Source: Phytophthora colocasiae (lineage: Eukaryota; Oomycota; Peronosporomycetes; Peronosporales; Peronosporaceae). From it: a stretch of DNA of 64,000 nucleotides. The position numbers were made by a program, and so were the translations under genes. How positions within the stretch are numbered: the first letter of the stretch is position 1; every line of letters starts with the position of its first letter. The stretch covers positions 124,001 to 188,000 of the forward strand of contig JAGKQI010000005.1 of NCBI GenBank assembly GCA_018806915.1, given 5' to 3'. Below the pieces are notes generated by a model, which saw only the letters and a list, made by a program, of their open reading frames with translations, made no database searches and was not told where the DNA came from. Below are positions 1 through 32,028 of this stretch, in pieces.

Positions 1-1360
1 TGATCGAGTTGGTACCAGGCGCGATGCGACAAATAGCGCTCGTCACACTCATCGAGTACGGCGTTCCGCAGCGAATCGGCCTCCTCCGCCGTTGCTCGAT
101 GAGCAGGGACTCCCCACTACCACGTGGAGCGCCTGATGGCGCGGCGTCGCCACCGTAGTCAAAACCAGTATCTGGTGAAGTGGCGTGGATATCCTCATTC
201 CCAAAACTCGTGGGAGTTTGAAGGGTCCCTGAGGCAGGACTGCCCTGACGTCGTGGACGCTTTTGATCGCGAAGATCAGGGGCGCCCGAAGGGCTCGAGG
301 TCGACCACTCGGTCGACACCCGCTTCTCACCACTAGTGTGAGAAGCTGACGGACTAGCAGCCGAGCTCAGGCTCTGGTCCGTGGCTGGCACAGCCAGCGA
401 GTCTCCCTCGGAGACTGAAGGAGCATCCTGCGAAGCAGGGATAGTGGCCTGAGAGGCGGGAGCCACTGCCGTCGTGTGACGAGGAAAGCGGCCGGGCCGC
501 ACGCGTATCTTCGCGTACTGGAAGAGTAGACCTCGGGCGAGGCGGACGTCCACCTCGGCGCAGCTCTCCATGAGCCGGTCAAACGACGCGAGCTTCCGTG
601 AAGCCTCGGCCCAGGTGGCCACATGGACCATGTAGTCCCGGGTGGTCTCTCCGGTTTGGAGCAGGAGTGGATAAGTCCTCATCTGAGGCACAGACTCCCG
701 TCGCCGTTGCTTATCTAAGCGTTGCCGATACTCGGCGAGTGTGCACACCTGCGGGGTCAGGAAACGCTCATGGAGCCCCTGTCGCTGCTGAGTCTCAGCC
801 ACCGTACGTGGAGGATTGCCTATGGCGTAACCATGCAGGTTTGGCTGCGCCATCAACTGCTTCACCTGCTCGGCAGGGTCGCGAGGCTCGAAGCCGTAGT
901 CGCGCCGCGACGAAGTCCCCACGATGTCCCGTTGGACCGGTCGACGTGACTCTGGAGCACCGCTCAGGGAAGCCTCCTGTGCCTCATCCAGAGGGTTGGT
1001 GATCGCGTCTTCGACTGCCTTGAGTGACTCTGGCTCATCGCGAGCAGGAAGCGGTGGTGCGTTGCGCAACGCGTTGAGCACGAGGCTCGAAGGTCCCTCC
1101 GGGAACGGATTGGGCTGCCGCAGCTGCCGAGGAATTGAGTACCGACGCGGATCGCGTGGAGAGCGCAGCTCAGATCGGGGCGTCCGAGGGCTCGCAGGAG
1201 CAGGAGACGCATGGGCATCGCCCTGTTCGGACTCCTCGTAGTCCACTTCGACCTCGCCTTCCTCTGTAGGAGAGCGACGTGGGTCGCGCGTCGGCGACGC
1301 TGTCGTGTACTCGAAGGGTGAGCCACCGCTACCACTTGACGTCGGGCTGACCTTGAACAT
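1..1360 (-). CDS. Antisense ORF of gypsy B0, partial
   Basis: Read on the minus strand from the ATG at 1360, this frame stays open to the window edge, about 450 codons. It is closely similar to the antisense ORF of gypsy B. It has an acidic N-terminal stretch (EEGEVEVDYEESEQ), then a Pro/Ser/Arg-rich segment, a central helical region (LTPQVCTLAEYRQRLDKQ), a second Ser/Pro-rich region with a basic patch, and then the start of a coiled-coil tail. The reading runs opposite the chromodomain. An 11-base insertion near 105-116 shifts the last part out of frame relative to gypsy B. No database family is recognised. It is not an ordinary shadow, because 340-1360 has no coding on the other strand. Confidence 0.65.
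   Translation of the reverse strand, partial: MFKVSPTSSGSGGSPFEYTTASPTRDPRRSPTEEGEVEVDYEESEQGDAHASPAPASPRTPRSELRSPRDPRRYSIPRQLRQPNPFPEGPSSLVLNALRNAPPLPARDEPESLKAVEDAITNPLDEAQEASLSGAPESRRPVQRDIVGTSSRRDYGFEPRDPAEQVKQLMAQPNLHGYAIGNPPRTVAETQQRQGLHERFLTPQVCTLAEYRQRLDKQRRRESVPQMRTYPLLLQTGETTRDYMVHVATWAEASRKLASFDRLMESCAEVDVRLARGLLFQYAKIRVRPGRFPRHTTAVAPASQATIPASQDAPSVSEGDSLAVPATDQSLSSAASPSASHTSGEKRVSTEWSTSSPSGAPDLRDQKRPRRQGSPASGTLQTPTSFGNEDIHATSPDTGFDYGGDAAPSGAPRGSGESLLIEQRRRRPIRCGTPYSMSVTSAICRIAPGTNSI
124..336 (+). pseudogene. Chromodomain at the end of B0 pol, frameshifted
   Basis: This 70-residue frame holds a chromodomain core (YLVKWRGYPHSQNSWEFEG) nearly identical to the C-terminus of the intact pol of gypsy B. 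Chromodomains at the end of integrase bind histone tails and can steer integration. An insertion of about 11 bases near 105-116, absent from gypsy B, separates this frame from the integrase tail upstream (1-105), so the B0 chromodomain is no longer fused to Pol. The same insertion also shifts the antisense frame. Confidence 0.75.
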
Positions 1361-1655
1361 CGCTCCGTAGCGAAGGCGAGACGCCGCGAAATACTCCGAA
1401 ACGGAGAGCGTGAGAGGAGCCGAGGGCTCAGACCGGAAAGCGCTGAGGCGCTGAGGCGTAGACGCCTGGGCACGGGACACCTCAGGAGCGGTTGGCTCGC
1501 TGGGGAGAATTGGAGAATGTGCTCGTTGAGCCAGCGCGCACGCGCACTCTCGTTGAGAGATTTCTTTTATCGGAAAGTTGCCGGTGACCGGCCTTGACAA
1601 GGCAGTTATGTCTACAGTTGTAGATACTCCGTATCCACGGTTTGGTGGGGGAGGG

Positions 1656-2057
1656 TGTAACGGGGTTACACGCCTTGGCTACAATAGGTGTGGTATACAC
1701 CATCCAGGTCACAAGTCACAGATCTGTGTACGACACATAGTGTTTCTCACACGTCACATATGTAGCCAGTTGCTGGCTGTTAGCTCAGAGCCACACATTG
1801 CATTTGATTAGGATTTAGTATGTTAGATACTAAATCCGTTACATTCAGGATTAGGGCAATAAAATAAATAAAAATCAGTTTGCATTTTACATAATTAGTG
1901 TTAGTTCCTTTATTATAGGGACACTGATTGTGAGAGTCCCGTATTTAGTGGACTACTTGGTTCTTGTATAGAACCGAAGGCTAGTGCCTTGCAAACAGGA
2001 CTCTACGAGTCAACCAAACTTCCTCTGTGCCGTGCACACCTACGCAGCCCCGCTGCA
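1656..2057 (+). repeat. LTR of the B family (3' LTR of B0)
   Basis: The LTR starts TGTAACGGGGTTACA and ends GCTGCA. It is the same family as the gypsy B LTRs at 20403-20823 and 32029-32455 but more diverged. It contains a perfect 11-base-arm hairpin around GGATTTAGTAT (about 1811-1837). Two bases after its end a primer-binding site follows, so it also serves as the only 5' LTR of the chimeric element A. Confidence 0.85.
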
Positions 2058-2385
2058 CCTGGTAGCAGTCCCACGACCGACTGCCGTTCGTTCGTATGGA
2101 GTCATACGAACGCGGGGTAGAGAACTCCCCAATGGATGAGGGATCCACTGGGACCCCTCACATGTCCGTTACGCGCACGGACTGTGCCCACCTGTCGGAT
2201 CCAGAGTGGGAAGCTCTCCAATGACTCTCGGAAGTCGTTGGAGAGGCAGCGGTAGCGACGATGCTTCGTACGCTATCGCCGACAGAGCAACACGGTGTTG
2301 CTCTGGTACATTGTTGAGGAGCAACGAGATGTTGCTGCCTCGACGGCTTTCCCTAAGCCACGCGTGGAGTCGTTGAAAACTCCAC
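2058..2385 (+). other. Leader of gypsy A and broken Gag N-terminus
   Basis: No complete ORF lies here. It holds several perfect hairpins, for example GTTCGTATG with its complement around a 4-base loop (2090-2112), AGAGCAACA/TGTTGCTCT (2284-2304) and CGTGGAGT at 2363-2370 with its complement at 2379-2386. From about 2305 a frame reads Gag-like residues (RVESLK) up to a run of four As at 2376-2379, where the frame shifts by one base into the main gag ORF. Confidence 0.6.
2060..2068 (+). other. Primer-binding site, initiator-Met tRNA type
   Basis: TGGTAGCAG two bases after the LTR end is the complement of a tRNA 3' end reading CTGCTACCA, as in many eukaryotic initiator Met tRNAs. The B family has TGGTAGCAC in the same place (complement at 20392-20400). 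Confidence 0.7.
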
Positions 2386-3081
2386 GTGAGTACCTACACG
2401 GGGAAGGAGGACGAGACCCTCCTTCGTTGGCTTGTCGAACTTGACACAGCCGCTGCGGCTCGACGTATCGTCGATCCGATGTCGAAGGTCGCGTTCGCCA
2501 TGTCATGTCTTGGCGGACGTGCGAGGAGTTGGGCCTATGGGCGCCGACTCTCGGATCCTACGTGCTTCAGCACGTATGAGGTGTTCAAGGAGGAACTCAA
2601 ACTTGCGTTTGAGCCTCCGAAGAACGAGTTCAGATCGAGAGCGGAGTTTCTCGATCTGCAGCAGGGCAAGGATGATGTTCACACCTTTGCCCAGCGTGCT
2701 CGATACTTGGTATCGAACATAGTGGCCAACCCGATCGACGAGGCGACCAAGGTCGTCACGTTCATGAAGGGACTAAGAGATGGTCCCGTCAAGACGTATC
2801 TCTTCCGAGAGTATCCGAATACGCTCGAAGAGGCGATCAGCCTTGCAATGCAAGAGGAGTTTAGCCGGCGTCAAGCTAAACTCCATGCGAACGCGCCGAA
2901 GCCGGCGCGTCCTGTTGTGAAGACGGGAGGTCCGGAACCTATGGACCTCTCGAGTGCTACGACTGCTGGTCAACAGCAGCGTAGGAACAGCAAGGTTCGA
3001 TGTTACAAGTGTAGTAACATCGGTCACTATGCACGCGAGTGCACAGCGGGCGGGCGTTCAAAAAACGCCAAGGACCATTAG
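2386..3081 (+). pseudogene. gag: Gag of gypsy A
   Basis: The open frame is 231 codons and begins at a GTG, with a TGA just upstream at 2374, so the true N-terminus lies in the frame before the extra A at 2376-2379. The first 150 residues match a retrotransposon Gag capsid domain (LLRWLVELD, FKEELKLAF, VVTFMKGLRDGPV, NTLEEAISLAMQEEF). A CCHC zinc knuckle follows (CYKCSNIGHYAREC, C-x2-C-x4-H-x4-C) near 2998-3042. Gag forms the particle and the knuckle binds genomic RNA. It ends at TAG 3079-3081, 12 bases after a slippery heptamer, so part of translation probably continues into Pro. Confidence 0.85.
3060..3066 (+). promoter_or_regulatory. Candidate -1 frameshift site, gag to pro (A AAA AAC)
   Basis: The heptamer AAAAAAC is split as A-AAA-AAC in the gag frame (codons TCA AAA AAC), the canonical -1 slippery phase used by several retroviruses. 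A -1 slip enters exactly the protease frame (positions divisible by 3). Four bases downstream AGGAC (3071-3075) can pair with GTCCT (3091-3095), a weak stem. A much stronger 9-base hairpin (TCGCGTGTC and its complement, about 3111-3135) lies further on. Confidence 0.6.
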
Positions 3082-3910
3082 GCGCGGGGCGTCCTACTGG
3101 TGATGCAGTCTCGCGTGTCGAGCTTGGACACGCGACATTGAGGACTGCTGCCCCCAGCGAGAAGGTTTCTCGCTGTAAGCTGCAAGATGACAAGTCAAAC
3201 CTTGTCATCCTGAACGTGATGTCGAAGAGAGTGAACTCTCTTCGTGCCCTAGTGGACTCGGGCGCGTCGAACAACTTTGTTCGACAGGGAAGTCTTCGAA
3301 GGCTTGACTTCGAGGAGGCCGACACGCCTCGCGGCGTGTTGGAGGTGCGGTTGGCAACAGGTGCCACCGTGAGGACTGAGAAGCGCGTAGTCCGTGTGCG
3401 CTTCTCTTACAAACGAAGGACGTTTGTAGAAGATCTTATCGTCTTGGATCTAGACGATAAGTTCGACTTGGTATTAGGCATGCCGTGGCTTGCACGACAT
3501 GACCCGGTGATCAACTGGGAGAAGCGTACACTCGTACGCTTCAACAACACATACACGACAGAGAGCGATGGCCCTGTCAGTGCTGCACATGCACCGGCCG
3601 GTGCATGTGGATCCCCAGTTGAGGCAGCAGCGGCCGCCGCTGCCTCCGATCGCCGCCGGCGACCATCAACGACTCCGGGAGTCGTTGTGAGAAAATGTGT
3701 GTCGACTCAGAAATCTGAGCCGAAGGGTCGCGGTCACATGAGTGATGGTCAGGTGAATGTGAATCACCTGACGCGTAAACATCTGAATGATGTTTGTCAC
3801 ATGAGTGATGGTCAGGTGAATGCGATTCACCTGAGAGAAGGTATTATACCGGTATTACCGGTATCCTTGGAGGTACTTCAAGCCTCCAAGGGTCGCGCCG
3901 ACGACGTCGC

Positions 3911-4221
3911 GTCAACTCTGGGAGTTGACGAAGCAAATAATATTCGGGGAACCGAAAGGCGTGCGTCAGCTCTGGGAGCTGACGCCACTGCCGCGTCGCT
4001 GCTTGTTCTGGGAACTAGCGATCGTGCATCAGCTCCGGGAGCTGATGATGCGTGTACAAGCGAACGTTCGCTGCTAGTTCCGGGAACTAGCGATCGTGCG
4101 TCAGCTCTGGGAGCTGACGATATGTGAACAAGCGAACACTCGCTAGCGCAGGAAGCTAGAGAGAGCACGTCGACTCCGGGAGTCGACGATGCGGTTGCTT
4201 CATCCGCTCCGGGAGCGGATG
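3911..4221 (+). repeat. Hairpin-coding repeats in the protease-RT linker of A
   Basis: At least six perfect hairpins with 6-8 base arms share a five-base loop CTGGG or CCGGG: 3911-3929, 3965-3983, 4027-4047, 4074-4090, 4100-4118, 4169-4187 and 4201-4221. Each encodes Ser/Leu-Ala/Val-(Leu/Pro)-Gly-(Ala/Thr)-Asp/Ser. Arms differ between units but each stays self-complementary, so they are not simple copies. Confidence 0.8.
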
Positions 4222-4627
4222 GAGGCGCAGCGGTTCAGGGAACCGACTGCGCGGCAGGAGGTGCTGGCGGTTGCAAACGCCCAGCACCCGAACAACCTGC
4301 GTGCTCACGTGCAGCAGCGCTGCACGCGATGAGCGGCACTCAAGCCGGGCTTGATAGTGCGAGTCAGCGGAAGGAATCCGCTGACGATTGCGATAACGTC
4401 CCGTCCAAGGTGCGATGCCTTGGACGTGGAGCACCTGGAGCCGGGCTCCACGGTAGACCTTCGCGGCGCAAGCTCAGGGAGCTGCGCGAGTCTCAGTCCG
4501 GGACTGAGACGGGTGTATCTGCAGTGCAGACACCGAGTGTCGAGACGTTGAACGTCTTGACACGTACGGGTACTGGGTTACAGTACCAGAGGATGCGGTT
4601 GGAGAACCGCCGACGAGTGCGTCGGCG

Positions 4628-7600
4628 TTGACCGCACTTCCAACGATGAGTTGGAAGCGCTTCGCGCGAGACTTGTACGATGGACGCATCGAACAAATTT
4701 GCATTCTCTCGGATATCGAGAGAGTGGATCGCGAAGCCGAGGAGCTGAAGCAGCTCGTCGTCGATGGCATCACTGAGGGCGATGACCCCCTCAGTGCGAA
4801 GACCAAGAAGCAACGCTTCGAGGAGCAGAGTTGGGACTCGTTGAAGTCGAGTCCCTATTACGAGATTCTGCGGGAGTACAAGGATGTACTCCCGGACGAG
4901 ATTTCTTCGGAGCTTCCGAAGGATAAGGGCGTACAGCACGAGATTGATCTCGTGCCGGACACGAAGTACTGTGTTACACGGCAGTGGCCACTGCCGCGTG
5001 AACAAGTGCAAGCGATCGACGACTTCTTTGAAAGTCGTCGTCTTGCAGGTCAAGTGCGGGAATCGAAGTCCCCGCACAGTGCTCCAACGTTCTGTGTTAA
5101 GAAACCACAGGGCGGCTGGCGCATCGTTCATGCGTACAACAAGTTGAACGATGCGACGATACCGGCGCAGACGCCGATACCGCGAAAAGATGTTATCATC
5201 GATTCGATGGCCTTGAGCACTATCTTCAGTGCTCTAGATCTGCGTGATGGATTCTATCAGATCCTCATGCGTGAGAGGGACATCCCTCTCACAGCGGTAA
5301 GCACTCCAAGCGGTATGCTTTGGGAGTGGCTCGTCATGCCACAGGGGCTTAAGAACGCCCCTGCGACGTTCAATAGATGCGTGACACATCTATTGCGCTC
5401 GGTGCGCGACTTCGCACCGAGCTACTTCGACGACGTGTTCGTCCACAGCCGGGCTGTGAACGGGAAGACGGACATTGAGATGCACAAGGTGCATCTCCGG
5501 AAGCTGCTAGAGCTTATGAGGAAACATAAGCTCTATGCGAACCTGAAGAAGTGTATCTTCGGGGCGAGCGAGATACCCGTGCTGGGGTGTCTCGTGGGGA
5601 AAGACGGCGTGCGCCCTGACCCAGAGAAGGTCAGAGTGATCAATGAATGGCCTACGCCATCCAATGTGAAGGAACTGAGGCAGTTCCTTGGGCTTGCCAC
5701 GTACTTGTGCAAGTACGTGGAGAACTATGCGGGCAAGATTCGCCCGTTGTCACAGCTTCTTAAGAAAGAAGCTGAGTGGATTTGGACGACCGAGTGCGAG
5801 GAGGCATTCGGTGCAGTCAAGCAGGGCTCGACTGAAGCGCCGATCTTAGCCGTGGCGGACCAAGATCGTCCATTCCACGTAGTGTGCGATGCATCCGACT
5901 TTGCAATCGGATGTGCATTGATGCAACACGATCACGAAGGGCGTGATCGTGTAGTCTACTATCAATCGCGTCAGCTGAAGCCAGCTGAGCGTAACTACCC
6001 TGTACATGACAAGGAGCTCCTTGCCATGAAGTATGCACTCGCAAAATTCCGAGTGTATCTACTTGGGAGTAGACCGTTCGTGGTCTATACAGACCACGCA
6101 TCATTGCGTACGGCGATTAAGTCGCCGCACATCTCGCAACGTATGGCGAGATGGTTGTCCTTCTTCGCGGAGTACAACTTCCGGGTGGAGTACAAACCCG
6201 GAAGACTCAATGTAGTGGCCGACGCGTTATCGCGTCGACCTGACTATGCGGAGACGGTCGACGCCAACGCAGTTGGCGTCGTGAGGACAAGTGTGCCGTC
6301 GTCAACGTCGATTGACGACGTGAAGAACGCGTATGCAAGGGATGCAGACGCGAAGGGGCTGCTGGAGTTCCTCGCAGCACCTTCCGACGTGGCACGTCGG
6401 AAGCTAACCCCTCATCTTCGAGCTCGTGTACACCGTTATCGTGTACACGAAGGCCTACTGTTGTACAGTGCAGTAGACGACAATGCGGATCGCATTGTCG
6501 TTCCGAATGATCATGACCTCCGGTTGAGGATCATGTTCGAGTATCACGATGCCCCCACGGCAGGGCATCCGGGTCGTGAGAAGACATACGCTCTTCTCAC
6601 GCGTGACTTCTACTGGCACCACCAGTACAAGTGGGTGCGCAAGTACGTACGTGCTTGCGAGGTTTGTCAACGCGTGAAGCCTGCGCAGTTCTCGCAGGCT
6701 CCTCTTCAATCACTACCGACTCCGTCGGAGTGTTGGCAGTCCATGTCCATGGACTTTGTCTTCGGTCTTCCGCCTGACAGCAAGCGGAGGACGGGCATCG
6801 TTGTCTTTGTGGACCGATTCAGCAAGATGGTTCATCTTGCTGCCGTCCCGGCTACTGTTACAGCCGCGCAGACTGCGCGACTGTTTGTTGACATGGTGTT
6901 CAAACACCATGGCATGCCGCTCGACATTGTGTCGGACCGTGATCCACGCTTCACAGCGCGGTTCTGGCAAGAAGTGTTTACACTTCTTGGTTCACAGTTA
7001 TCAATGTCGACTGCGGATCATCCGCAGACGGACGGACAGACCGAACGTGTCAACCGTGTATTGGGTGACACGTTGAAGAGCTACGCTCACTCGTTCCCGC
7101 ATTGGAGCGAGTGCTTGCCGATGGCAGAGTTTGCCATCAACAACTCGGTGCATGCCTCGACAGGGCATACACCGTTCTACGTGAACGCCATGAGGCATCC
7201 ACGATTGCCGAGCATGCTCGGCGGGGTAGCTTCCTCCTTAAGTGGGGGAGGATCTACGGTTGCGTCCGAACAACCGCAGAATGCAACTGATAGCAGCACA
7301 CTATCAGCTGCGGTGACGCGTGCGACGTCTCGTTCGAGCAGGAACGAGCGCGCGATGTCTGTGCCGGGCACAGACATGAGAGATGATAGCGAGCAGGCAG
7401 GGCCTGCTGCTGACAAGGGCGACAAGCTGAAAGGATTCAGCTCGGGTGCGCTAGACTTTGTCCAGCGAAGACAAGCCGTCATACGGTTTGTCCAAGATGC
7501 TATCGCAGCTTCTGTCGATCGACAGAAGCTGAACGCTGATACTGTTGGTAGAGGCAACACAAATGAATTCGAAAAGGGTTCATTAGTTTTGTTAGCTACA

Positions 7601-7879
7601 CAAAACCTACCTAGACATGCAGTGTCTGACTTTGGAGCAAGCAAGCTTGCTCCAAGATTCATTGGGCCGTTCAAAGTACTTGAACGGCACGGCAACGCGT
7701 ACCGGCTGGACATACCGTCCAGCATGAGACTCCACCCGACCTTCTACGTCGGGCGGTTGAAGCCGTACGTGCAGAACGGACTACCTAGGGTTGGTAGTCC
7801 GACTGAGGAGTGCGAGAGGCCTGGAAGGCCTTCTCGAGACCGTCGACACGGTCGATCAACTGGTTCATTCTCGTCCTAA
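4628..7879 (+). CDS. pol: Pol of gypsy A: reverse transcriptase, RNase H, integrase
   Basis: The frame has 1083 codons from a TTG; it really continues from pro before the frameshift near 4606. Domains in order: RT with HSAPTFCVKKPQGGWR and the catalytic YFDD (about 5421-5432); RNase H with VVCDASDFAIG (5878), DKELLAMKYAL and YTDHASLRT; integrase with an HHCC zinc finger (HDAPTAGH ... CEVCQRVK, about 6545-6675) and catalytic D, D, E in MDFVFG, VSDRDPRF and QTDGQTERVNR; and a GPF-type tail (RFIGPFKVLERHGNAYRLD). It makes the cDNA and inserts it. The frame ends at TAA 7877-7879, but the chromodomain continues in the same frame after it. Its 3' end overlaps the antisense ORF. Confidence 0.92.
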   Translation: MTALPTMSWKRFARDLYDGRIEQICILSDIERVDREAEELKQLVVDGITEGDDPLSAKTKKQRFEEQSWDSLKSSPYYEILREYKDVLPDEISSELPKDKGVQHEIDLVPDTKYCVTRQWPLPREQVQAIDDFFESRRLAGQVRESKSPHSAPTFCVKKPQGGWRIVHAYNKLNDATIPAQTPIPRKDVIIDSMALSTIFSALDLRDGFYQILMRERDIPLTAVSTPSGMLWEWLVMPQGLKNAPATFNRCVTHLLRSVRDFAPSYFDDVFVHSRAVNGKTDIEMHKVHLRKLLELMRKHKLYANLKKCIFGASEIPVLGCLVGKDGVRPDPEKVRVINEWPTPSNVKELRQFLGLATYLCKYVENYAGKIRPLSQLLKKEAEWIWTTECEEAFGAVKQGSTEAPILAVADQDRPFHVVCDASDFAIGCALMQHDHEGRDRVVYYQSRQLKPAERNYPVHDKELLAMKYALAKFRVYLLGSRPFVVYTDHASLRTAIKSPHISQRMARWLSFFAEYNFRVEYKPGRLNVVADALSRRPDYAETVDANAVGVVRTSVPSSTSIDDVKNAYARDADAKGLLEFLAAPSDVARRKLTPHLRARVHRYRVHEGLLLYSAVDDNADRIVVPNDHDLRLRIMFEYHDAPTAGHPGREKTYALLTRDFYWHHQYKWVRKYVRACEVCQRVKPAQFSQAPLQSLPTPSECWQSMSMDFVFGLPPDSKRRTGIVVFVDRFSKMVHLAAVPATVTAAQTARLFVDMVFKHHGMPLDIVSDRDPRFTARFWQEVFTLLGSQLSMSTADHPQTDGQTERVNRVLGDTLKSYAHSFPHWSECLPMAEFAINNSVHASTGHTPFYVNAMRHPRLPSMLGGVASSLSGGGSTVASEQPQNATDSSTLSAAVTRATSRSSRNERAMSVPGTDMRDDSEQAGPAADKGDKLKGFSSGALDFVQRRQAVIRFVQDAIAASVDRQKLNADTVGRGNTNEFEKGSLVLLATQNLPRHAVSDFGASKLAPRFIGPFKVLERHGNAYRLDIPSSMRLHPTFYVGRLKPYVQNGLPRVGSPTEECERPGRPSRDRRHGRSTGSFSS

Positions 7880-9332
7880 GACCGGACGAGAGGTTCGAGG
7901 CAGTCTGAGCTGCCTCGCAGACCTCAGCACGGAGGACACGAACCTCCTGCTTCAGAGCAGCTATCTCAGCGCTCTGTGTCTGCTCCAGCGCAGCAACTCG
8001 ATCGTGCAGGGCACGATCGTCATGGTCATAGCGTTGACCATGCGGAGGGAGTGTTCCCACCCCCTCCGCCGCCGTTGCGCGACGCGCGTGGAGCGATCCG
8101 CTGGATTGTGGAGCGGATCGTGGCTCATAAGAGAACGAACTCTCAAGGGGTTCGTTTTCGTATTCGTTGGAGAGGATTTCCTCCCCATCGAGATACATGG
8201 GAGCCGCGGAACGTCCTGATGGAGGACGTTCCGGAAATGGTGAGGGCGTACGAAGCCCACCATAACTTGCAGGGGTAATCCCTGCACGAGGAGTGCTGCG
8301 GTCAGCCACAGCACTCGGAGCTTCGCGTGGCACAATACGACCACGGAGCTCCTTGATGTGATCGGGTACACGGACGACCGTGTACCCCAGGAGATCACTT
8401 TCGGTAAGACGTGTTGCCAAGGGTTGGCAACACGGGCAGGGTGTGCCAAAGGGAACGGCACATGGGATCCCCGCTTCCATGGACTGATCATGGAGGCGTT
8501 CACACTTACCACGTGTAGTGTAAGTGTAGTAGCGATCGCGAGCCGCAGCAACGCGATCGCGATAGGCCTTCGGGTCTTTGTTGAAGTTCTCAACAAAGGC
8601 GTTCCACGACTGACAAAGTGCCTGCCACTCTGGCACTTTGCTCTTGCGGGAAGTCTTCTTCGCTGCATAGTATCGGAGCTCGTGGAAGAGCCCGATATAG
8701 TAGTCGCTTCTTTGAGTCTCGGACTCAAAGACAACCTTAGCGGCGACGTCGTCGTCGTTGATACTGTTGCATGAGTACAACAGTATCGGGTTCGGTGGTG
8801 AACTAGCACCGAACCGGTCATGGATCTCCGCCTCAGTAGGCATCCATGGCGTGCGCACTAGCGGATCAGTGCGCGGTGCAGTGAGCGCCCTCGACATGGG
8901 GGACGCTTCATCATCACTGCGCGGACGCTTCGAGCTTGAAGCGTCCGAGACCTCAACACGAGGTCGTCGAGATCCCACGGGTGGGTCTGACGTGTCTTCG
9001 GACGAAGACACGGGAGCGGGAGCCTTGACATCAACCTCCCCCTCCTCAACATCCTCGTCGTAGTCGAGGATGTCTTCGTAGTCCTCTCCAAAGAGTTCTT
9101 TGAGAGGGACAGCAGGATTCTTAATCTCTGCTAGAGAAGAAGACTTCTTCTTCTTCTCTTGCTTCTCCTTATGGAGAGCATGGTACTTGGTGACAGAGAG
9201 CTTCTCTGTCGGACCGCTGGAAGCAGCAGTGCTAGTGGGCACTGCTGAGGTCGTTGTTCCTGTTGCAGAGGCAGCAGGTGAGGCTTGCGCGTCCGCAGAA
9301 GCGGACGGAGACGTGGGCGTTGGCGAGTCCAT
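7785..9332 (-). CDS. Antisense ORF of gypsy A, 515 codons
   Basis: This begins with a true ATG (9330-9332) about 100 bases inside the 3' LTR and has no interruption. Layout: Ala/Ser/Thr-rich residues 1-45; a Lys-rich stretch; an acidic segment (DILDYDEDVEEGEVDV, about 83-98); a basic patch (SSSKRPRSDD) that could be a nuclear signal; a central helical domain (about 180-290) with a Cys cluster (GTPCPCC); a Pro/Ser-rich hinge; and a C-terminal coiled coil (VAALEQTQSAEIAALKQEVR). The first two thirds face no sense gene. The last third lies opposite the chromodomain and integrase tail. The family is not recognised. The acidic-helical-coiled-coil plan resembles the antisense ORF of gypsy B and, more loosely, that of D, with little residue identity. 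It is intact although gag and pol in this copy carry several lesions. Confidence 0.75.
   Translation of the reverse strand: MDSPTPTSPSASADAQASPAASATGTTTSAVPTSTAASSGPTEKLSVTKYHALHKEKQEKKKKSSSLAEIKNPAVPLKELFGEDYEDILDYDEDVEEGEVDVKAPAPVSSSEDTSDPPVGSRRPRVEVSDASSSKRPRSDDEASPMSRALTAPRTDPLVRTPWMPTEAEIHDRFGASSPPNPILLYSCNSINDDDVAAKVVFESETQRSDYYIGLFHELRYYAAKKTSRKSKVPEWQALCQSWNAFVENFNKDPKAYRDRVAAARDRYYTYTTRGKCERLHDQSMEAGIPCAVPFGTPCPCCQPLATRLTESDLLGYTVVRVPDHIKELRGRIVPREAPSAVADRSTPRAGITPASYGGLRTPSPFPERPPSGRSAAPMYLDGEEILSNEYENEPLESSFSYEPRSAPQSSGSLHARRATAAEGVGTLPPHGQRYDHDDRALHDRVAALEQTQSAEIAALKQEVRVLRAEVCEAAQTASNLSSGLRTRMNQLIDRVDGLEKAFQASRTPQSDYQP
7880..8278 (+). CDS. Chromodomain of gypsy A pol, after an in-frame stop
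   Basis: This is the same frame as pol, separated only by TAA 7877-7879. A Pro/His-rich linker is followed by a chromodomain (WIVERIVAHKRTNSQGV, then FRIRWRGFPPHRDTWEP, about 8099-8220). In gypsy B the chromodomain is fused to integrase without a stop. Here the stop is either a lesion or is read through; the sequence alone cannot decide. The whole segment lies opposite the antisense ORF. Confidence 0.75.
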   Translation, partial: DRTRGSRQSELPRRPQHGGHEPPASEQLSQRSVSAPAQQLDRAGHDRHGHSVDHAEGVFPPPPPPLRDARGAIRWIVERIVAHKRTNSQGVRFRIRWRGFPPHRDTWEPRNVLMEDVPEMVRAYEAHHNLQG

Positions 9333-9420
9333 TGCGAAATGAACTCGGATTTCTCTCGGGAACTTGACGGTCTTGTCAAGTTCTGTTGATTGACGTATCG
9401 AGACCGATACGTCGAATCTT

Positions 9421-9430
9421 AACGGGGGGA
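9421..9430 (+). other. Polypurine tract of gypsy A
   Basis: AACGGGGGGA stands three bases before the LTR start and would prime plus-strand DNA synthesis. Confidence 0.7.
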
Positions 9431-9784
9431 TGGTGTAACGGGGTTACACGTACAAGTGGTTGTACCACTTGTAACTCTAACAGTTAGGATAACTGTTAGA
9501 GGTTGGAAATGGGCCTCAGACCTTGGTGTGCTGTACACACCAAAGGATACATGGGCGAACCACATTATTGGGTGGTTCGTGTGCATTTGTGCATATTATT
9601 GGTAGAAAGTAACGGATTTCTACCAATCACTGAGCAGACCCTTTAGAAATAGATAACAAACAGTTTTAGGAGGTCCATAATTGGCTTATGCCAAATTCAA
9701 TAACAGTTCTCATTTTACGGTATTTTTGCAGTTTAATTTAGTTATATTTGATTTAATTATACTTATTTAAATAAGTATACTTAA

Positions 9785-11734
9785 CTCCTTGGACGCGGCG
9801 GTTTTTGCACGTGTTGTGTTGTTCTGTACAACATAACAAGACTTGATTTCAGTATGCCAAAAATTCCGCAAAACCGAACTGATGTATCAATGGACAAATC
9901 TGTCGACTGTGATTGGTGACACGTGGACGCATTCTACAACTTGACTGGTAGTTCAAAACACGTGGTGAACCAAAACTTTTCACAAATTTGAAACGTAGAG
10001 AAACAAAAGTCGGTTCCCCTCGGCTCATTCGATTGACACGCACGTAATCGCGCACGTCGCGCCATGGATATCAAGGTGGTGTGGCCTCTACTACGCAAGG
10101 CCAACTGGACAGCAAGACCTCCGACAGGACTCGACGTTCAGTACGCTTGCGTTATGTTATTGATGTTGTAATTACTCTAATGCGCTGTATTTTATTTGAC
10201 GTAGCTTTGACTATGTAAAGCCAGGATGTAGTCGGAAGACTGGTACTAGGGGCGTTGACTATTTTAACGGGGAGGGCGAGCTGCTGGCGTATGTGCGCGG
10301 TGATAAGAATGGCAGTAGCCGCCTCTGATCCGGGGCTGCTTGCATTGGGATGGGCGGACAACAACATTGTCTACTTCTTGGCTTCTCATGTTAGTGCGGA
10401 CCGTACATCTGTGCAGCGTCGAGAGAAAAATGGCGTGATGTCGACGGTACCCTGTCCAGCGCTAGTTGCTGAGTATCAACGATACATGGGAGGCGTGGAT
10501 CGTCACGATCAACTACGACTCCAATCTTACTCAATGCAGCTATCGACAAGGTAATATGTTGACACGGGTGACTTATGATTTCGATTTTATGCTGACGTAC
10601 TAATGTCAACGTATTTTTCTAACTTTATGCTGTTCTGGACGCAGGTTCACTAAGTACTACAAAAACCTGTTTCTGAGACTGGTAGATATGGCTGTTGTCA
10701 ACGCGTATATCATTCACAAGGCGACACAAGAAGCAGAGCAAAGGACGCGCATTTCGCATTCCTCTCCGCGTTGCACCAGCAGCTGCTTGCTCAGTCCGAA
10801 ATGGATTTTACCCAGACGACGGTACCTTCACCGTCGAAGCCGCGGCGTGTGAACACGCTACCTGCTATGGTCACTAGTGAACACAACCTAGTTTTGACGG
10901 CTGCAAAGCGAGATAATGATGGTGTGAAGCGTACACGACAGCGTGGGTGCAAGGTTTGCTTGTATTACAAGCCTAAGGGTCAAAAGCGGGGGAAGAGCTC
11001 GCGATACTACTGCCCGACGTGCACGGTGAAGATGGAAGGGTTGATTCCTCTTTGCAATACCGTCCGTGGGTACACGGAAAATGAAGGCTTGACGTGCTCA
11101 CAAATTTGGCACTTAGTCTGGCACAACGGGGAGTTGCTCCTCATGAGTGCCGTATTCGCCGTCGTTCTGTCAAAGAGTAGGCTAAACACTTGAAATACAC
11201 GTACTGATAGCACACAGCTACATGTTAGATCCATGCTGTGTTGCAGGGTGGTGGAAACGTCACGTAGCCTTACAGACCGACCGGAAACTGAGCTGGACAC
11301 CTGTGACGAGCATACCTTCGCCACTCGCCGCTTCGTAGAGTATGGCACATCGCTGCTGGCCTGTTGCTTCTTGCTGGCGCCGCGCAGACAGAAGCTGAGC
11401 ACGTCATGGCGCTAGGAATGAGCGTATCGAAGCTCCGCGGTTGCAGTGAGCGGAGCGCCTGTGGCTATGACCGCTGCCATTAAATTTTTTAAAAAAAATG
11501 CCTTTCTACACCCGTGTCAAAAGGGGTTTGATTAGGTAAAATGCAACTGATAATGAAGCATCACGTTTTTGCGAGGAATATTAATGGAGAGCTTAGCTAC
11601 ATGTTGTGCGCAAAACATCCATTTTGATATTAGTGCTCAGTATACCATTCTGAAACTAATACATTTTCTTACGCTGTTCTGTACAACATAAGTCATATGT
11701 TATGATGTTCCCGTCAACATCCGCGTCCAAGGGG
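9785..11734 (+). mobile_element. Degenerate piggyBac element
   Basis: It is flanked by the TTAA target duplication typical of piggyBac (9781-9784 and 11735-11738). The terminal inverted repeat is 14 bases, C(T/C)CCTTGGACGCGG. A second motif, TTCTGTACAACATAA, occurs inside both ends in the same orientation (about 9821 and 11674). The internal transposase is decayed and largely deleted, so the element is non-autonomous. It landed in the 3' LTR of gypsy A. Confidence 0.85.
10064..11193 (+). pseudogene. piggyBac transposase remnant
   Basis: Recognisable parts are a short N-terminal exon from ATG 10064; a PG...RGVDYFNGEG stretch (about 10206-10270); the core segment LALGWADNNIVYFLAS; the signature CPALVAEYQRYMGGVDRHDQLR (10450-10518) containing the last catalytic Asp; FTKYYKNLFLRLVDMAVVNAYIIHK after an intron; and a C-terminal Cys-rich region (CKVCLYYKP ... 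YYCPTCTVKM). A clean GT-AG intron at 10551-10644 joins the reading frame exactly, and another is likely at 10151-10204. The central part with the first catalytic residues is missing and the frame is broken. Confidence 0.75.
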
Positions 11735-11834
11735 TTAAATTAAGTCTATTCTAATTGCACGCTTCCTCATACACGTAAGCGCACGTGTACGCCACCTAAT
11801 AGGTCTAAGTAGACCCATTACAGAAGCTGCTGCT

Positions 11835-27046: not shown

Positions 27047-30000
27047 GTGACATTTAGTGTCAACGCACAGGAGGGCTGTGGGCAGCTATACACTCTGGTT
27101 GATGGAGTGGACGGCAGTGCCGAAGGCAGCGTCCTGCTGGACGGACTGCCAAGTGTTGACAAGCTCCTTGAGCTAGAGGAGATGTCGTTCGCCGACTTTG
27201 GCGATGCCTTGAAGGCTGGCGAACTCGCCGAGGTGGTCATCGTTCGACCTGAAGAGGAGTTAAACTCATCGTCCCTCGTTGACGAGTCCGTCTTGGCCGA
27301 GGTCAAGAAAGCGCTGAGCGCCAGGAGTGGATCGGAGATCCTCAAGAGTCCCTCGGATCCCTTCTACTCCTTGCTGAAGGAATATGGAGACGTTGTCTCG
27401 AAGGAACCACCGAGTGGCCTGCCTCCTGACCGAGGCGTTCGTCACGAGATCGACTTAGTTCCGGGAACTAAATACTGCGTGACCCAACAGTGGCCTCTTC
27501 CTAAAGAGCAATGCGACGTCATTGACGCCTTCTTCCGTGCGAAGCACGCGGCGGGTCTCGTGCGCGAGAGCAAGTCTCCGCACTCCGCGCCAACGTTCTG
27601 TGTCAGAAAGCCGAATGGCAAGTGGCGTATCGTTCACGCTTTTAACAAGCTCAACGCTGCCACGATTCCGGCGCAGACGCCGATTCCTAGGAAAGACGTT
27701 CATCAGAACAACATGGTGGGTTGCACCATGTACAGTGCGCTCGACTTAGTCGATGGCTACTATCAGCTGCTCATGCGAGCCAGTGATATTCCACTTACAG
27801 CGGTGAGCACCCCGAGCGGTATGCTCTGGGAGTGGCTCGTCATGCCCCAAGGGCTCTCGAACGCGCCCGCAACGTTCAATCGTCTAGTGACGCAGCTGTT
27901 CAGGCCCCTACGGGCATTCGCACAAACGTACTTTGACGACGTGTTCGTCCACAGTCAGGCCGAACACGGCAAGACTGACGTTGAGGTGCACGTGGAACAC
28001 GTGAGAGCTGTGCTCGAGTGCATGCGCACGAACAAGCTGTACGCCAACGCAGACAAGTGCGTCTTTGGCGCGGAAGAAATCCCCTTCCTAGGGTGCTTCA
28101 TTGGGAAGCATGGCCTTCGTGCTGATCCAGCGAAGGTCAAGGCCATTGTGGATTGGCCGGTTCCCTTGAACCAGAAGGACTTGCGTAAGTGGCTGGGTTT
28201 GGCCAACTACTTGCACAAGTACAGCGAGAACTACGCTGAGTTGGCTCGGCCACTGACGGATCTCCTTAAGAAGGATGCCGAGTGGGTATGGCGTACCGAG
28301 CACGAGAATGCGTTCACTTGTATCAAGGATAGCCTGCTTCAGGCACCGATACTGGCGCTGCCAGACCCCGCTCGTCCGTTTATTGTCGTCTGTGACGCCT
28401 CGGACTTTGCCATCGGCAGTGCTTTGCTACAAGCGGACGCCGAAGGGCGCGAACGCGTCATTGCGTTTGAGTCGCGACAGCTCAAGGCTGCTGAGAAGAA
28501 CTATCCAGTTCATGACAAGGAGCTACTTGCGATGAAGTACGCTCTCGTCAAATTCAGGGTTCACCTGCTCGGCTCCAAGCCGTTTGTGATCTACACGGAT
28601 CATGCGTCACTACGCACAGCGACGCAGTCGCCTCACCTCTCGCAGAGGATGGCCCGATGGCTCTCCTTCTTTGCGGAGTATAACTTCGAGGTGAAGTACA
28701 AGCCTGGCAGGCAGAACGTCCTCGCTGACGCGTTATCACGTCGCCCGGACTATAAGTTATCTCATGTCACCTCGGTGACGTCGTCCGTGACGGACATGGT
28801 TCGAGCAGCGTACGCTCAGGACGACTCATGTGTCGCGCTGCTTCAAGCTCTAGGGAGCGATGAGTTTTAGGACTCAAAAGTGACTCTGTCACGACGCCTA
28901 AAGGCGAGACTCCAACGCTATAGCCTGGAAGGCGGTCTGCTGTACTACAGCACGGGTCAGGATGACCCACCACGTGTGGTGGTTCCTCACGATGAGGACC
29001 TGAAGTATCGCGCCCTCTATGAGGCCCACGACACGCCAACAAGCGGCCACCTCGGTCGCGAGAAGACCTACGGCTCAGTGAGCTCCATGTACTGGTGGCC
29101 GAAGATGTACAAGTGGGTCAGCACATATGTGCACACGTGCGAGACGTGTCAGCGGGTTAAACCCTCCCCGCATGCGGCAGCGCCTTTGGCGAGCTTGCCT
29201 GTACCCTCTGGGTGTTGGTAGTCCATGAGTATGGACTTTGTGTTTGGCCTGCCGAAGGACTCGGCAGGCAACACGGGCGTGGTGGTCTTTGTTGACCGTC
29301 TGAGCAAGATGGCTCACCTAGCGGCTGTGCCGGACACCGTCAGTGGCGCTGGTACAGCGACGATCGTTATCGATCGGGTCTTCCGCCAGCATGGGCTGCC
29401 AGAGACCATTGTCTCGGATCGAGACCCCCGTTTCACGGGTCACTTCTGGGCGTCCGTCTTTAAGGTGCTTGGCACTCGACTGGACATGTCCACGGCGGAT
29501 CATCCGCAGACCGATGGTCAGACTGAGCGCGTGAATCGCGTCCTGGAGGACATCCTCCGCAGCGTATGCGCTGAAACGCCGAAGCGTTGGAGCGCTATGC
29601 TCCCTCTCGTTGAGTTCTCAATGAACAACGCGGTGCATGCCTCGACAGGCTTCACCCCGTTCTACGTGAACGGCCTTGCGCATCCGTGCGTCCGGCTCAC
29701 TCCGCCACACGGTAGCCTTGGGCTTGGTGGGGGAGAGGCTCTGCCGTCGCTCGACTCCGAGCTTGCTGATGTCAGCCCTCTTGCTGTTCGTAAACAAGTC
29801 GATGACTTCCTCTCGACGAGATTGAGCGTCTTACGACGTGTGCGTGACGCGATGGCTGAAAGTCAAGATGTTCAAAAGGAACAAGCTGATGCAAAAGGCA
29901 GAGGCAATGTGTGGGAATTCAAGGTCGGTGACCAAGTTTTATTAAACGCTAAGAACCTACCTACACATGCAGTGTCGGCCGTCTTTAAGACGAAATTGCG

Positions 30001-30736
30001 TCTGCGCTTCATCGGACCGTTCACGGTCGTGGCCAAGAAGGGCCTGGCATACACGCTGGACTTGCCGAAGCGGATGCGAACACATCCTGTGTTCTACGTC
30101 GGCTTACTCAAGCCATATCGGGACCCCGCGGGGGTGAGCGCGGAGGCGCTAGCGCCGAAGGCACACGCGCAGGCTGCGTCCTCTGCAGCAGCATCGCCAC
30201 CTGACCCCGCAGCTCAGCGAGCTGAAGCTCCTGCTGGTGCAGGCGAGCAGTCAGGGACTGAGGCCCTTCGAGCCAAGCCACCCGGCTTTCAATTTCCTTT
30301 ATGTCATGAGCGAGACGGGCATGCGAATGCCAAACGCTCTCCATGTTCCCCTGAAGAGACTGAGTCTGACTCTGGAGAGTACCGATCGAGCGATCGAGTT
30401 GATACCAGGCGCGCTGCGACAAATAGCTCTCATCATACTCATCGAGTATTGCGTCCCGCAGTGAATCGGCCTCCTCCGCCGTTGCTCGATGAGCATTACC
30501 ACGTGGAGCGCCTGATGACGCGGCGTCGCCACCGTAGTCAAAACCAGTATCTGGTGAAGTGGCGTGGGTATCCTCATTCCCAAAACTCGTGGGAGTTTGA
30601 AGGGCCCCTGAGGCAGGACTGCCCTGACGTCGTGAACGCTTTTGATCGCGAAGACCGGAGGCGCCCGAAGGGCTCGAGGTCGACCACTCGGTCGACACTC
30701 GCTTCTCACCACTATTGTGAGAAGCTGACCTGCTAG
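27047..30736 (+). pseudogene. pol: Pol of gypsy B: RT, RNase H, integrase, chromodomain
   Basis: This is one continuous frame interrupted only by TAG 28868-28870 and TAG 29219-29221. Gypsy A has CAG (Gln) at the second site (CWQSMSMDF), so a C-to-T change explains it. Domains: RT (HSAPTFCVRKPNGKWR, catalytic YFDD about 27930); RNase H (VVCDASDFAIG, DKELLAMKYAL, YTDHASLRT); integrase HHCC finger (HDTPTSGH ... CETCQRVK) and D-D-E (MDFVFG, VSDRDPRF, QTDGQTERVNR); GPF tail (RFIGPFTVVAKKGLAYTLD); then a long Ala/Pro/Ser linker and a chromodomain (YHVERLMTRRR, YLVKWRGYPHSQNSWEFEG). Integrase and chromodomain are fused here. The last 629 bases lie opposite the antisense ORF. Confidence 0.92.
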
Positions 30737-31973
30737 CAGCCGAGCTCAGGCTCTGGTCCGTGGCTGGCACAGCCAGTGATTCTCCTTCGGAGACTGGAGG
30801 AGCGTCCTGCGAAGCAGGGATAGTGGCCTGAGAGGCGGGAGCCACTGCCGTCGTGTGACGAGAAAAGCGGCCGGGCCGCACGCGTAGCTTCGCGTATTGG
30901 AAGAGCAGACCTCGGGCGAGGCGGACGTCCACCTCGGAGCAGCTCTCCATGAGCCGATCGAACGACGCGAGCTTCCGTGAAGCTTCGGCCCAAGTGGCCA
31001 CATGGAACATATAGTTCCTGGCCGTCTCTCCGGTCTGGAGTAGGAGCGGATACGTCCTCATCTGAGGCACAGACTCGCGTCGTCGTTGCTTATCCAAGCG
31101 TTGCCGATACTCGGCGAGTGTGCATACCTGCGGGGTCAGGAAACGCTCATGGAGCCCTTGCCGCTGCTGGTTCCCAGCCGCCGTGCGAGGTGCAGCGCCT
31201 ATGGCGTATCCGTGCAGGTTTGCCTGCGCCATTAACTGTTTCACCTGCTCGGCAGGGTCACGAGGCTCGAAGCCGTAGTCGCGTCGCGACGAAGTCCCCA
31301 CGATGTCCCGTAGGACCGGTCGACGTGACTCTGGAGCACCGCTCATAGAGGCCTCCTGTGCATCATCCAGAGGGTTGGTGATCGCGTCTTCGACGCTCCC
31401 GGGTGTCTCATCACGAGCAGGAAGTGGCGGAGCGTTGCGCAACGCGTTGAGCACGAGGCTCGAAGGTCCCTCCGGGAATGGATTGGGCTGATGCAGCTGC
31501 CGAGGAAGCGTGTACCGACGCGGATCACGGGGAGAGCGCAGCTCAGATCGAGTCGTCCGAGAGCTCGCAGGAGCAGGAGACGCAGGGGCATCGCCCTGTT
31601 CGGACTCCTCATAGTCCACTTCGACCTCGCCGTCCTCAGCAGGAGAGCGACGTGGGTCGCGCGTCGGCGACGCTATCGAGTACTCGAACGGCGAGCCACC
31701 GCTACCACTTGTAGTCGGGCTGCCCTTGAACATCGCTCCGTAGCGAAGGCGAGACGCCGCGAAATATTCCGAAGCGGAGAGCGTAAGAGGAGCCGGGGGC
31801 TCAGGCAGGAAAGCGCAGAGGCGCTGAGGCGGAGACGCCAGGACACGGGACACCCGAGGAGCGGTAGGGTCGCTGGGGAGAATTGGAGAATGTGCTCGTT
31901 GAGCCAGCGCGCACACGCACTCTCGTCGAGAGATTTCCTTTATCGGAAAGTTGCCGATGACAGGCCTTGACAA
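30108..31973 (-). CDS. Antisense ORF of gypsy B
   Basis: The frame is open for 621 codons; the first ATG is at 31733 (MFKGSPTTSG), giving 541 residues, and the codons before it start with TTG. Layout: Ser/Gly N-terminus, acidic EDGEVEVDYEESEQ, Arg/Pro-rich segment, helical centre (LTPQVCTLAEYRQRLDKQRR ... ASFDRLMESCSEVDVRLARG), Ser/Pro-rich hinge with DQKRSRRQ, and a C-terminal coiled coil (LEGPQSLTARLHQQELQLAE) ending Pro-rich. It begins about 300 bases inside the 3' LTR and ends opposite the integrase-chromodomain linker. It is uninterrupted, whereas sense gag and pol of this copy are broken. The B0 copy matches it residue for residue over most of its length. No family is recognised. Confidence 0.75.
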   Translation of the reverse strand: MSRPVIGNFPIKEISRRECVCALAQRAHSPILPSDPTAPRVSRVLASPPQRLCAFLPEPPAPLTLSASEYFAASRLRYGAMFKGSPTTSGSGGSPFEYSIASPTRDPRRSPAEDGEVEVDYEESEQGDAPASPAPASSRTTRSELRSPRDPRRYTLPRQLHQPNPFPEGPSSLVLNALRNAPPLPARDETPGSVEDAITNPLDDAQEASMSGAPESRRPVLRDIVGTSSRRDYGFEPRDPAEQVKQLMAQANLHGYAIGAAPRTAAGNQQRQGLHERFLTPQVCTLAEYRQRLDKQRRRESVPQMRTYPLLLQTGETARNYMFHVATWAEASRKLASFDRLMESCSEVDVRLARGLLFQYAKLRVRPGRFSRHTTAVAPASQATIPASQDAPPVSEGESLAVPATDQSLSSAASRSASHNSGEKRVSTEWSTSSPSGASGLRDQKRSRRQGSPASGALQTPTSFGNEDTHATSPDTGFDYGGDAASSGAPRGNAHRATAEEADSLRDAILDEYDESYLSQRAWYQLDRSIGTLQSQTQSLQGNMESVWHSHARLAHDIKEIESRVAWLEGPQSLTARLHQQELQLAELRGQVAMLLQRTQPARVPSALAPPRSPPRGPDMA

Positions 31974-32028
31974 GGCAGTTATGCCTGCAGTTGTAGATAC
32001 CGCGTATCCACGGTTTGGTGGGGGAGGG

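What the first reader, a model, noticed from the sequence alone, without database searches (positions are those of the whole stretch)
2058..9520. Gypsy A is saturated with short perfect hairpins along its whole length
Seen directly: between about 4737 and 6320 I find some 37 stems of at least 6 perfect pairs with loops of 0-20 bases, one every 45 or so bases, and about 19 have arms of 8-11. Examples: CCACGTACTTG (5697-5707) with its complement 5710-5720; TAGAGCTTATG (5508-5518) with 5525-5535; GTGAGAGGGA (5271-5280) with 5283-5292; GCTCGGTGC (5397-5405) with 5414-5422; CACGATCAC (5927-5935) with 5943-5951; and the 18-base palindrome CGGCAGTGGCCACTGCCG (4979-4996). Arms of 8 or more at such loops should occur about once per 1.7 kb by chance (rough estimate). 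The pattern continues in the leader, gag, pro linker, antisense ORF and LTR, so it ignores coding boundaries. At the same protein motif (QWPLP) gypsy B uses codons that do not form the palindrome, so synonymous choice makes the hairpins. Gypsy B shows the pattern weakly; D does not obviously show it. Possible reasons: selection on genomic RNA structure (packaging, strand transfer, evasion or use of Dicer) or a repeated template-switch process that writes self-complementary patches.
Basis: partly seen in the sequence, partly recalled or inferred. Interest (0 to 1): 0.95.

Follow-up and report, generated by a model that had tools for sequence, protein, structure and literature searches.

The report
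Jumping gene tiled with tiny hairpins
A virus-like jumping gene in a water-mould (Phytophthora-type) genome is covered end to end with short, perfectly self-complementary hairpins that its copies largely keep intact, which hints at an unknown job or an unusual copying process.

Summary
Gypsy element A (2058-9787) has 114 perfect hairpins with arms of 8 or more, against 2.5 in dinucleotide shuffles; pol has 40 against 1.7 in codon-preserving shuffles. Two chromodomain-type gypsy elements, a hAT element and a FYVE gene in the window lack it. The pattern crosses leader, gag, pro, pol, an antisense gene and the LTR. Gypsy B is not a weak version of A: it is saturated with shorter hairpins (arms 4-6, loops 3-4).

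Among 19 further copies, pol third-codon-position variants shared by three or more sequences hit 2 of 322 stem sites against 37 of 762 others. G-U is not preferred to A-C, so selection on the sense RNA alone is unlikely. Three loops are exactly inverted in some copies, a footprint of hairpin-templated strand switching.

Best reading: hairpins arise or are mended partly by strand switching and are kept by purifying selection for a strand-blind function, perhaps keeping sense and antisense nucleic acid folded so as to avoid double-stranded RNA and silencing. The constraint is shown for A; its cause and function are inferred.

The parts
2058..9787 (+). Gypsy element A as present in the window: internal region from the leader on, and 3' LTR; saturated with short perfect hairpins
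   Evidence: 114 hairpins with arms of 8 or more vs 2.5 by shuffle; borders by comparison with 20 other copies
2386..3081 (+). gag: Retrotrans_gag and CCHC zinc knuckle
   Evidence: Pfam; 6 hairpins with arms of 8 or more vs 0.2 by codon shuffle
3039..4127 (+). protease ORF (RVP_2) with a repetitive tail
   Evidence: Pfam; 22 hairpins vs 1.2
3667..4510 (+). tract of nine similar 21-nt hairpin units whose paired positions change together
   Evidence: units were picked because they are hairpins
4628..7879 (+). pol: RT, RNase H, integrase
   Evidence: Pfam in two pieces; 40 hairpins vs 1.7 by codon shuffle
7785..9332 (-). antisense ORF of 515 aa between pol and the 3' LTR, under codon-level constraint
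   Evidence: 498 homologous proteins at E up to 0.001; 25 hairpins vs 1.0
9434..9787 (+). 3' LTR of A (approximate ends), with hairpins of its own
   Evidence: LTR matches in other copies; hairpins listed
3812..3834 (+). hairpin whose 3-nt loop is exactly inverted in 6 copies
8709..8731 (+). hairpin whose 3-nt loop is exactly inverted in 1 copy
9475..9501 (+). LTR hairpin whose 3-nt loop is exactly inverted in 1 copy
8532..8560 (+). site where one substitution swaps one hairpin for an overlapping one (10 and 8 of 20 sequences)
1..2057 (+). 3' part of a gypsy B copy inserted into A
   Evidence: 89.7% to 30392-32455; A 5' LTR and leader upstream of the B LTR in L046
26700..32455 (+). second gypsy B copy (start approximate), saturated with smaller hairpins (arms 4-6, loops 3-4)
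   Evidence: RT ORF 27047-28867: arm 5 with loop 3-6, 30 vs 5.4 by codon shuffle; size spectrum measured on another copy, L033

Best explanation
A is a Ty3/Gypsy retrotransposon whose whole sequence has become a series of short perfect hairpins (arms mostly 7-11, loops mostly 0-10, one about every 53 nt). SHOWN: the excess; its confinement to the element; depletion of shared variants at stem positions, including synonymous ones; Watson-Crick stems without a preference for G-U; a related family (B) with the same trait at a smaller size; occasional exact loop inversion. INFERRED (origin): perfect stems are created or mended when the reverse transcriptase, or a host polymerase, switches strand within a hairpin. 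INFERRED (maintenance): purifying selection for self-complementarity. INFERRED (function, least certain): both the sense and the antisense single strands of the element need to fold on themselves; the element carries an antisense gene and so probably makes both RNAs, and rapid local folding into stems too short for Dicer would hinder their annealing into double-stranded RNA and hide them from small-RNA silencing.
For: Excess over shuffles. Stem constraint: pol third positions 2 of 322 arm vs 37 of 762 other sites with variants shared by three or more sequences, hairpins taken from any copy (p 2.3e-4). Paired changes: 30 of 33 doubly changed cells are again Watson-Crick, 22 of the 30 at two pairs. 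Nine similar units, 7 of 9 pairs with changes on both sides. Strand symmetry. Antisense gene with codon-level constraint and homologues. Stems stay short also in leader and LTR, longest 12. Loop inversions. Published, from passages: Phytophthora small RNAs come largely from transposable elements (PMC3804510) and map in both orientations along P. infestans gypsy elements (PMC3522703).
Against: No transcript, small-RNA or structure data were available. C, which has no hairpin excess, may also have an antisense ORF after pol (48472-50238; homology to A's only E 0.036), so an antisense gene alone does not predict hairpins. The LTR shows no stem constraint (1/120 arm vs 1/203 other) and the 3' region little (8/445 vs 22/929). 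In B constraint is unproven: RT third positions arm 5/198, loop 5/64, outside 17/389. B folds only modestly better than shuffles (z about -1.7). The Dicer size limit is recalled, not tested.
Confidence: 0.38

Rival explanations
1. Mutation, not function: the reverse transcriptase of A (and of B) often snaps back and copies its own strand, writing and repairing short inverted repeats. Stem size is a property of each enzyme and the element merely tolerates the result.
For: Perfect Watson-Crick stems, strand symmetry, family-specific sizes, positions not shared between families, sharp element borders, 3 loop inversions. Template switching can create and maintain hairpins (PMC8794818, abstract); repeat conversion was proposed for nematomorph coding palindromes (PMC6649704, passages).
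Against: Unbiased copying between arms should spread about as many changes as it undoes, but no doubly changed pair lies in pol while 38 of 829 pol third positions outside window hairpins carry shared variants; protein constraint on the partner arm could explain part of this. Only 3 of 97 clusters fit strand switching. No excess of A-specific residues in arms.
Confidence: 0.25
2. Selection on the sense genomic RNA: the hairpins are dispersed packaging or condensation signals for Gag, or genome-scale ordered RNA structure.
For: Excess folding stability (z -3.9 on the sense strand); Gag has a zinc knuckle; stem constraint.
Against: G-U is not favoured: G-T 22 vs A-C 36, 27 vs 27 at outer stem ends, 110 vs 121 new single changes. 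The reverse strand folds as well or better (difference 0.45, se 0.22). No common loop motif in A apart from the CGG of the repeat tract.
Confidence: 0.12
3. A DNA-level role: hairpins form in single-stranded cDNA or as cruciforms and help integration, shield cDNA or affect chromatin.
For: Strand symmetry and Watson-Crick pairing; loop lengths that favour fold-back; a weak lean towards wobble on the reverse strand (22 vs 36, p 0.09).
Against: No specific benefit known; cruciforms would favour long arms with very short loops, but arms stop at 13.
Confidence: 0.15
4. Chance, base composition or assembly artefact.
For: None found.
Against: Dinucleotide and codon shuffles. Of 181 hairpin loci seen in any of 21 sequences, 112 are present in about three quarters or more of the covering sequences.
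Confidence: 0.01

Closest known systems
Coding palindromes in mitochondrial genes of Nematomorpha (PMC6649704; abstract, section list and passages seen)
   Same: Many perfect inverted repeats inside protein-coding genes, scattered, gained and lost between species, apparently maintained.
   Different: There arms reach 284 bp and the genome is mitochondrial; here arms stop at 13, spacing is about 53 nt, noncoding parts are included, and the carrier is a retrotransposon.
Template-switch mutations creating and maintaining hairpins (PMC8794818; abstract, opening text and section list seen)
   Same: One event can make or mend a perfect stem; loop inversion fits.
   Different: Studied in RNA genes and DNA replication; here more than 100 stems in one mobile element, and only 3 of 97 clusters carry the footprint.
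Genome-scale ordered RNA structure (GORS) of RNA viruses (PMC3695492 and others; search listing and start of abstract only)
   Same: Element-wide excess of folding stability, coding regions included.
   Different: No sign of G-U tolerance or of one favoured strand; stems are perfect and short.
Viroids folding compactly to escape RNA silencing (PMC3185485; search listing and start of abstract only)
   Same: The idea that self-structure hides an RNA from silencing.
   Different: Viroids are noncoding circles; A codes for proteins and its stems are short separate hairpins.
Plant Retand and other gypsy elements with antisense ORFs before the 3' LTR (PMC11963269; search listing and start of abstract only)
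   Same: A long pol-to-3'LTR region; the listing shows antisense ORFs.
   Different: Whether Retand elements show hairpin saturation was not looked at.

Membership tests
Ty3/Gypsy LTR retrotransposon | Gag, protease, RT-RNase H, then integrase | tested here: met
   Pfam hits in that order
Ty3/Gypsy LTR retrotransposon | Long terminal repeats at both ends | tested here: met
   Window has the 3' LTR; several other copies have both; a 5' LTR lies upstream of the B insertion (L046)
GORS | Folding energy well below shuffled controls along the genome | tested here: met
   Mean z -3.91 over 64 windows of 120 nt, 95% below -2
GORS | Structure of the sense RNA, G-U pairs tolerated (criterion recalled) | tested here: not met
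   G-T 22 vs A-C 36; reverse strand z -4.36
Coding palindromes (Nematomorpha type) | Perfect inverted repeats in coding sequence far above chance | tested here: met
   Codon shuffles
Coding palindromes (Nematomorpha type) | Long arms | tested here: not met
   Longest arm 13
Template-switch hairpins | Reverse-complement footprints at the hairpins | tested here: met
   3 of 97 clusters, 0 in three controls
Template-switch hairpins | Arms written in one step | tested here: inconclusive
   No close relative without the hairpins could be fetched; no excess of protein changes in arms
Anti-silencing structure | Fewer small RNAs or less double-stranded RNA from hairpin-rich elements | not testable with these tools
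   No RNA data held

The most novel reading that the evidence does not exclude
The hairpins act as a built-in error-correcting code: each arm is a second copy of the other, and the element's own reverse transcriptase uses hairpin-templated strand switching to restore mutated arms. Stems would then stay perfect and almost free of fixed changes, G-U would have no advantage, loops would now and then be inverted, and each family's enzyme would set its own arm and loop size.
Probability: 0.1. Interest if true: 0.97.

Novelty: new variant of a known kind. Interest (0 to 1): 0.85.

Why it matters
A mobile element that gives some 42% of its sequence to short perfect hairpins, in coding and noncoding parts alike, and largely keeps them, is under a strong constraint of unknown cause. 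Related families differ in hairpin size, so the trait can be compared, dated and tested. It bears on how reverse transcriptases mutate their own genomes, how transposons meet RNA silencing in oomycetes, and how much structure synonymous sites can carry.

Tried and rejected
Chance and composition: rejected by shuffles. Sense-RNA-only selection: not supported by the G-U test and strand z scores. A shared loop motif as a protein-binding site: none in A apart from CGG of the repeat tract; in B GNA triloops 21 of 163 vs 10.5 expected and TNC 12 vs 9.4, not pursued. Conserved hairpin positions between A and B or F (L038): not found. Close relatives in viral contigs: none confirmed. Intermediate families, by searching the genome with a P. 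idaei and a P. cactorum protein: the listed matches look like A copies; three of the more divergent were fetched and are 95-97% identical to A outside stems in pol. Homology of the A and B antisense proteins: only a weak match of 45 residues, E 0.005; of A's with C's antisense ORF: E 0.036 over 27 residues. A pooled third-position test for B (p 0.03) used the RT frame outside the RT ORF and is not relied on. In one search copy L019 was poorly mapped (pol) and its row is not used; one search left it out.

Full report
WHAT IT IS. The window lies in a 92.5-Mb genome. The best-scoring named relatives of A's proteins come from Phytophthora: RT 85-86% identical to P. cactorum and P. cinnamomi proteins, antisense protein 84% to a P. 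citrophthora protein. A has gag with a zinc knuckle, protease, RT-RNase H and integrase, and an antisense ORF of 515 aa between pol and the 3' LTR. The antisense ORF looks like a real gene. At sites outside stem arms, shared variants fall at its third codon positions in 18 of 363 sites, against 6 of 375 and 6 of 372 at first and second positions; 15 of 20 copies have no stop in it, gapped codons set aside. It has 498 homologues at E up to 0.001 among 8000 scored candidates. A 742-bp probe of A gave 40 matches, the number scored out of 870 candidates. A 5' LTR of A and about 100 bp of leader lie upstream of the window and are followed by a B LTR; B ends at window 2057, where A resumes.

All six quoted hairpins are present. 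A holds 114 hairpins with arms of 8 or more and loops up to 20, against 2.5 (sd 1.9) in 40 dinucleotide shuffles. Codon-preserving shuffles leave the excess in place: pol 40 vs 1.7 (max 4), pro 22 vs 1.2, gag 6 vs 0.2, antisense 25 vs 1.0. The other ORFs tested (D, two of C, hAT) show none, and the two kilobases around the FYVE gene at 13.2-14.5 kb hold one hairpin with arms of 8 or more. Counted without overlap (arms of 7 or more, loops up to 16) there are 145 hairpins covering 42% of A, centres 53 nt apart on average (sd 26). Arm lengths are 7:37, 8:26, 9:39, 10:26, 11:14, 12:2, 13:1; 136 of 145 loops are 0-10 nt. In leader and LTR the longest arm is 12.

B HAS THE SAME TRAIT AT ANOTHER SIZE. 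In 3767 nt of one B copy (L033) there are 127 hairpins with arms of 5 or more and loops up to 8. Arm 5 with loop 3-4 occurs 39 times against 4.6 expected, arm 4 with loop 3-4 53 against 19.8, arm 6 with loop 1-4 25 against 2.1. Nine further loci were picked, one per codon variant of QWPLP, from the first 100 listed of 1044 pattern matches. L043 is B itself (95% identical). L038, L042 and L044 show a 2.1- to 2.5-fold excess of arms of 6 or more, L037 1.7-fold, and L039, L040, L041 and L045 none; each is a single 1.6-kb piece. Hairpin positions are not clearly shared between A and B (9 of 72 B centres within 2 nt of an A centre, 4.9 expected) or A and L038 (1 of 11, 0.9 expected). Density rather than place seems to matter.

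COPIES KEEP THE STEMS. In 20 further copies (1.7-3.6% substitutions from the window copy), variants shared by three or more sequences occur at 36 of 2595 arm sites, 45 of 772 loop sites and 140 of 4348 others, hairpins (arms of 7 or more) taken from the window. Taking hairpins from the window copy favours conserved arms, so they were also taken from any of 19 copies plus the window (arms of 8 or more): pol third positions then show 2 of 322 arm sites against 37 of 762 others (Fisher p 2.3e-4), while rare variants are at 28 of 322 and 82 of 762. Related copies are not independent, so the p value is only a guide. By region (arm vs outside, window hairpins): leader 1/72 vs 14/216, gag 1/107 vs 19/509, pro 13/401 vs 40/608, linker 3/158 vs 13/295, pol 1/762 vs 46/2295, 3' region 8/445 vs 22/929, LTR 1/120 vs 1/203. 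The LTR gives no support and the 3' region little. Of 32 arm pairs listed with a shared variant, 19 are the first or last pair of the stem. When both bases of a pair differ from the window, 30 of 33 cells are again Watson-Crick; 22 of the 30 are two pairs of the hairpin at 4099-4119. Across nine similar units 7 of 9 pairs change on both sides, but the units were picked because they are hairpins. At about 8546 one substitution swaps one hairpin for an overlapping one, 10 and 8 of 20 sequences. In B the constraint is unproven: RT third positions arm 5/198, loop 5/64, outside 17/389, though 20 of 25 doubly changed cells are Watson-Crick.

STRAND AND PAIRING. If the sense RNA were selected to fold, G-U should be tolerated and A-C not. 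Among stems with one mismatch at family-fixed sites, G-T is found 22 times and A-C 36 (p 0.09; three stricter cut-offs give 18 vs 29, 9 vs 14 and 9 vs 13). At outer stem ends it is 27 vs 27. New single changes in copies are 110 vs 121. Folding z scores in 120-nt windows are -3.9 (sense) and -4.4 (reverse) for A, the difference being 0.45 with se 0.22; -1.6 and -1.8 for B; and -0.6 to +0.1 for the seven other sequences tested. In B single changes are 63 G-T vs 45 A-C, so there is no consistent lean. The constraint appears strand-blind.

ORIGIN. In three hairpins a 3-nt loop is exactly inverted with the stem kept: at 3812 in 6 copies, at 8709 and 9475 in one each. A scan of 97 distinct clusters of three or more substitutions found these 3 as reverse-complement copies of nearby sequence and none as reversed, complemented or duplicated copies. 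So strand switching at these hairpins seems to happen, but explains few clusters. RT residues that lie wholly in arms differ from the residue common to 21 homologues in 1 of 82 cases, others in 15 of 326 (p 0.21); for the antisense protein, 16 homologues, 13 of 60 vs 59 of 190 (p 0.19). Stems thus show no excess of protein change, with the caution that the homologues may share the hairpins. In pol only 8 of 40 hairpins fall in the phase with fewest free positions, but in all ORFs together it is 28 of 93.

MECHANISM. I commit to a two-part reading: strand switching supplies or mends perfect stems, and selection keeps them. For the benefit I favour, weakly, self-folding of both strands against double-stranded RNA and silencing. 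The element has an antisense gene; stems stay below the length that Dicer is generally taken to need (recalled); and Phytophthora makes small RNAs from transposable elements (PMC3804510, passages), in both orientations along P. infestans gypsy elements (PMC3522703, passages). Pure mutation, sense-RNA packaging and a DNA-level role stay open.

NOVELTY. Ten paper searches, seen as listings, with the abstract or passages of five papers read, showed no report of a retrotransposon saturated with short perfect hairpins. The library holds open-licence papers only. The nearest case seen is the coding palindromes of nematomorph mitochondria (PMC6649704).

Noticed in passing
7785-9332 (-): A conserved antisense gene of 515 aa sits between pol and the 3' LTR of A, with 498 homologous proteins found, the best named ones in Phytophthora; no confident Pfam domain.
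   Followed up: partly
30108-31973 (-): B has an antisense ORF of 621 aa in the same place, with only a weak match to that of A (E 0.005) and no Pfam hit.
   Followed up: partly
2055-2150 and L046 3089-3185: About 96 bp of A's leader are found on both sides of the inserted B copy, far longer than the usual target-site duplication of a few bases (recalled); cause not worked out.
   Followed up: no
11735-11822: An 88-bp piece 97.7% identical to A's sequence just after the 5' LTR (L046 2994-3081) lies about 2 kb downstream of A, with no A LTR match beside it.
   Followed up: no
3609, 3771, 4462-4591, 8580-9110: Breakpoints of deletions or duplications recur among A copies at these places; those at 3609 and 3771 lie at ends of hairpins 3586-3609 and 3748-3772.
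   Followed up: no
44012-46960: Element C carries a second RNase H-type domain (RVT_3) and a chromodomain, and no hairpin excess; compare oomycete elements with an added RNase H in PMC5348765 (passages).
   Followed up: no
B hairpins, L033 and two B stretches of the window: Loops of B are closed by a 5' pyrimidine and 3' purine twice as often as the reverse (259 vs 128 of 387), a bias absent in A (72 vs 65 of 137).
   Followed up: no
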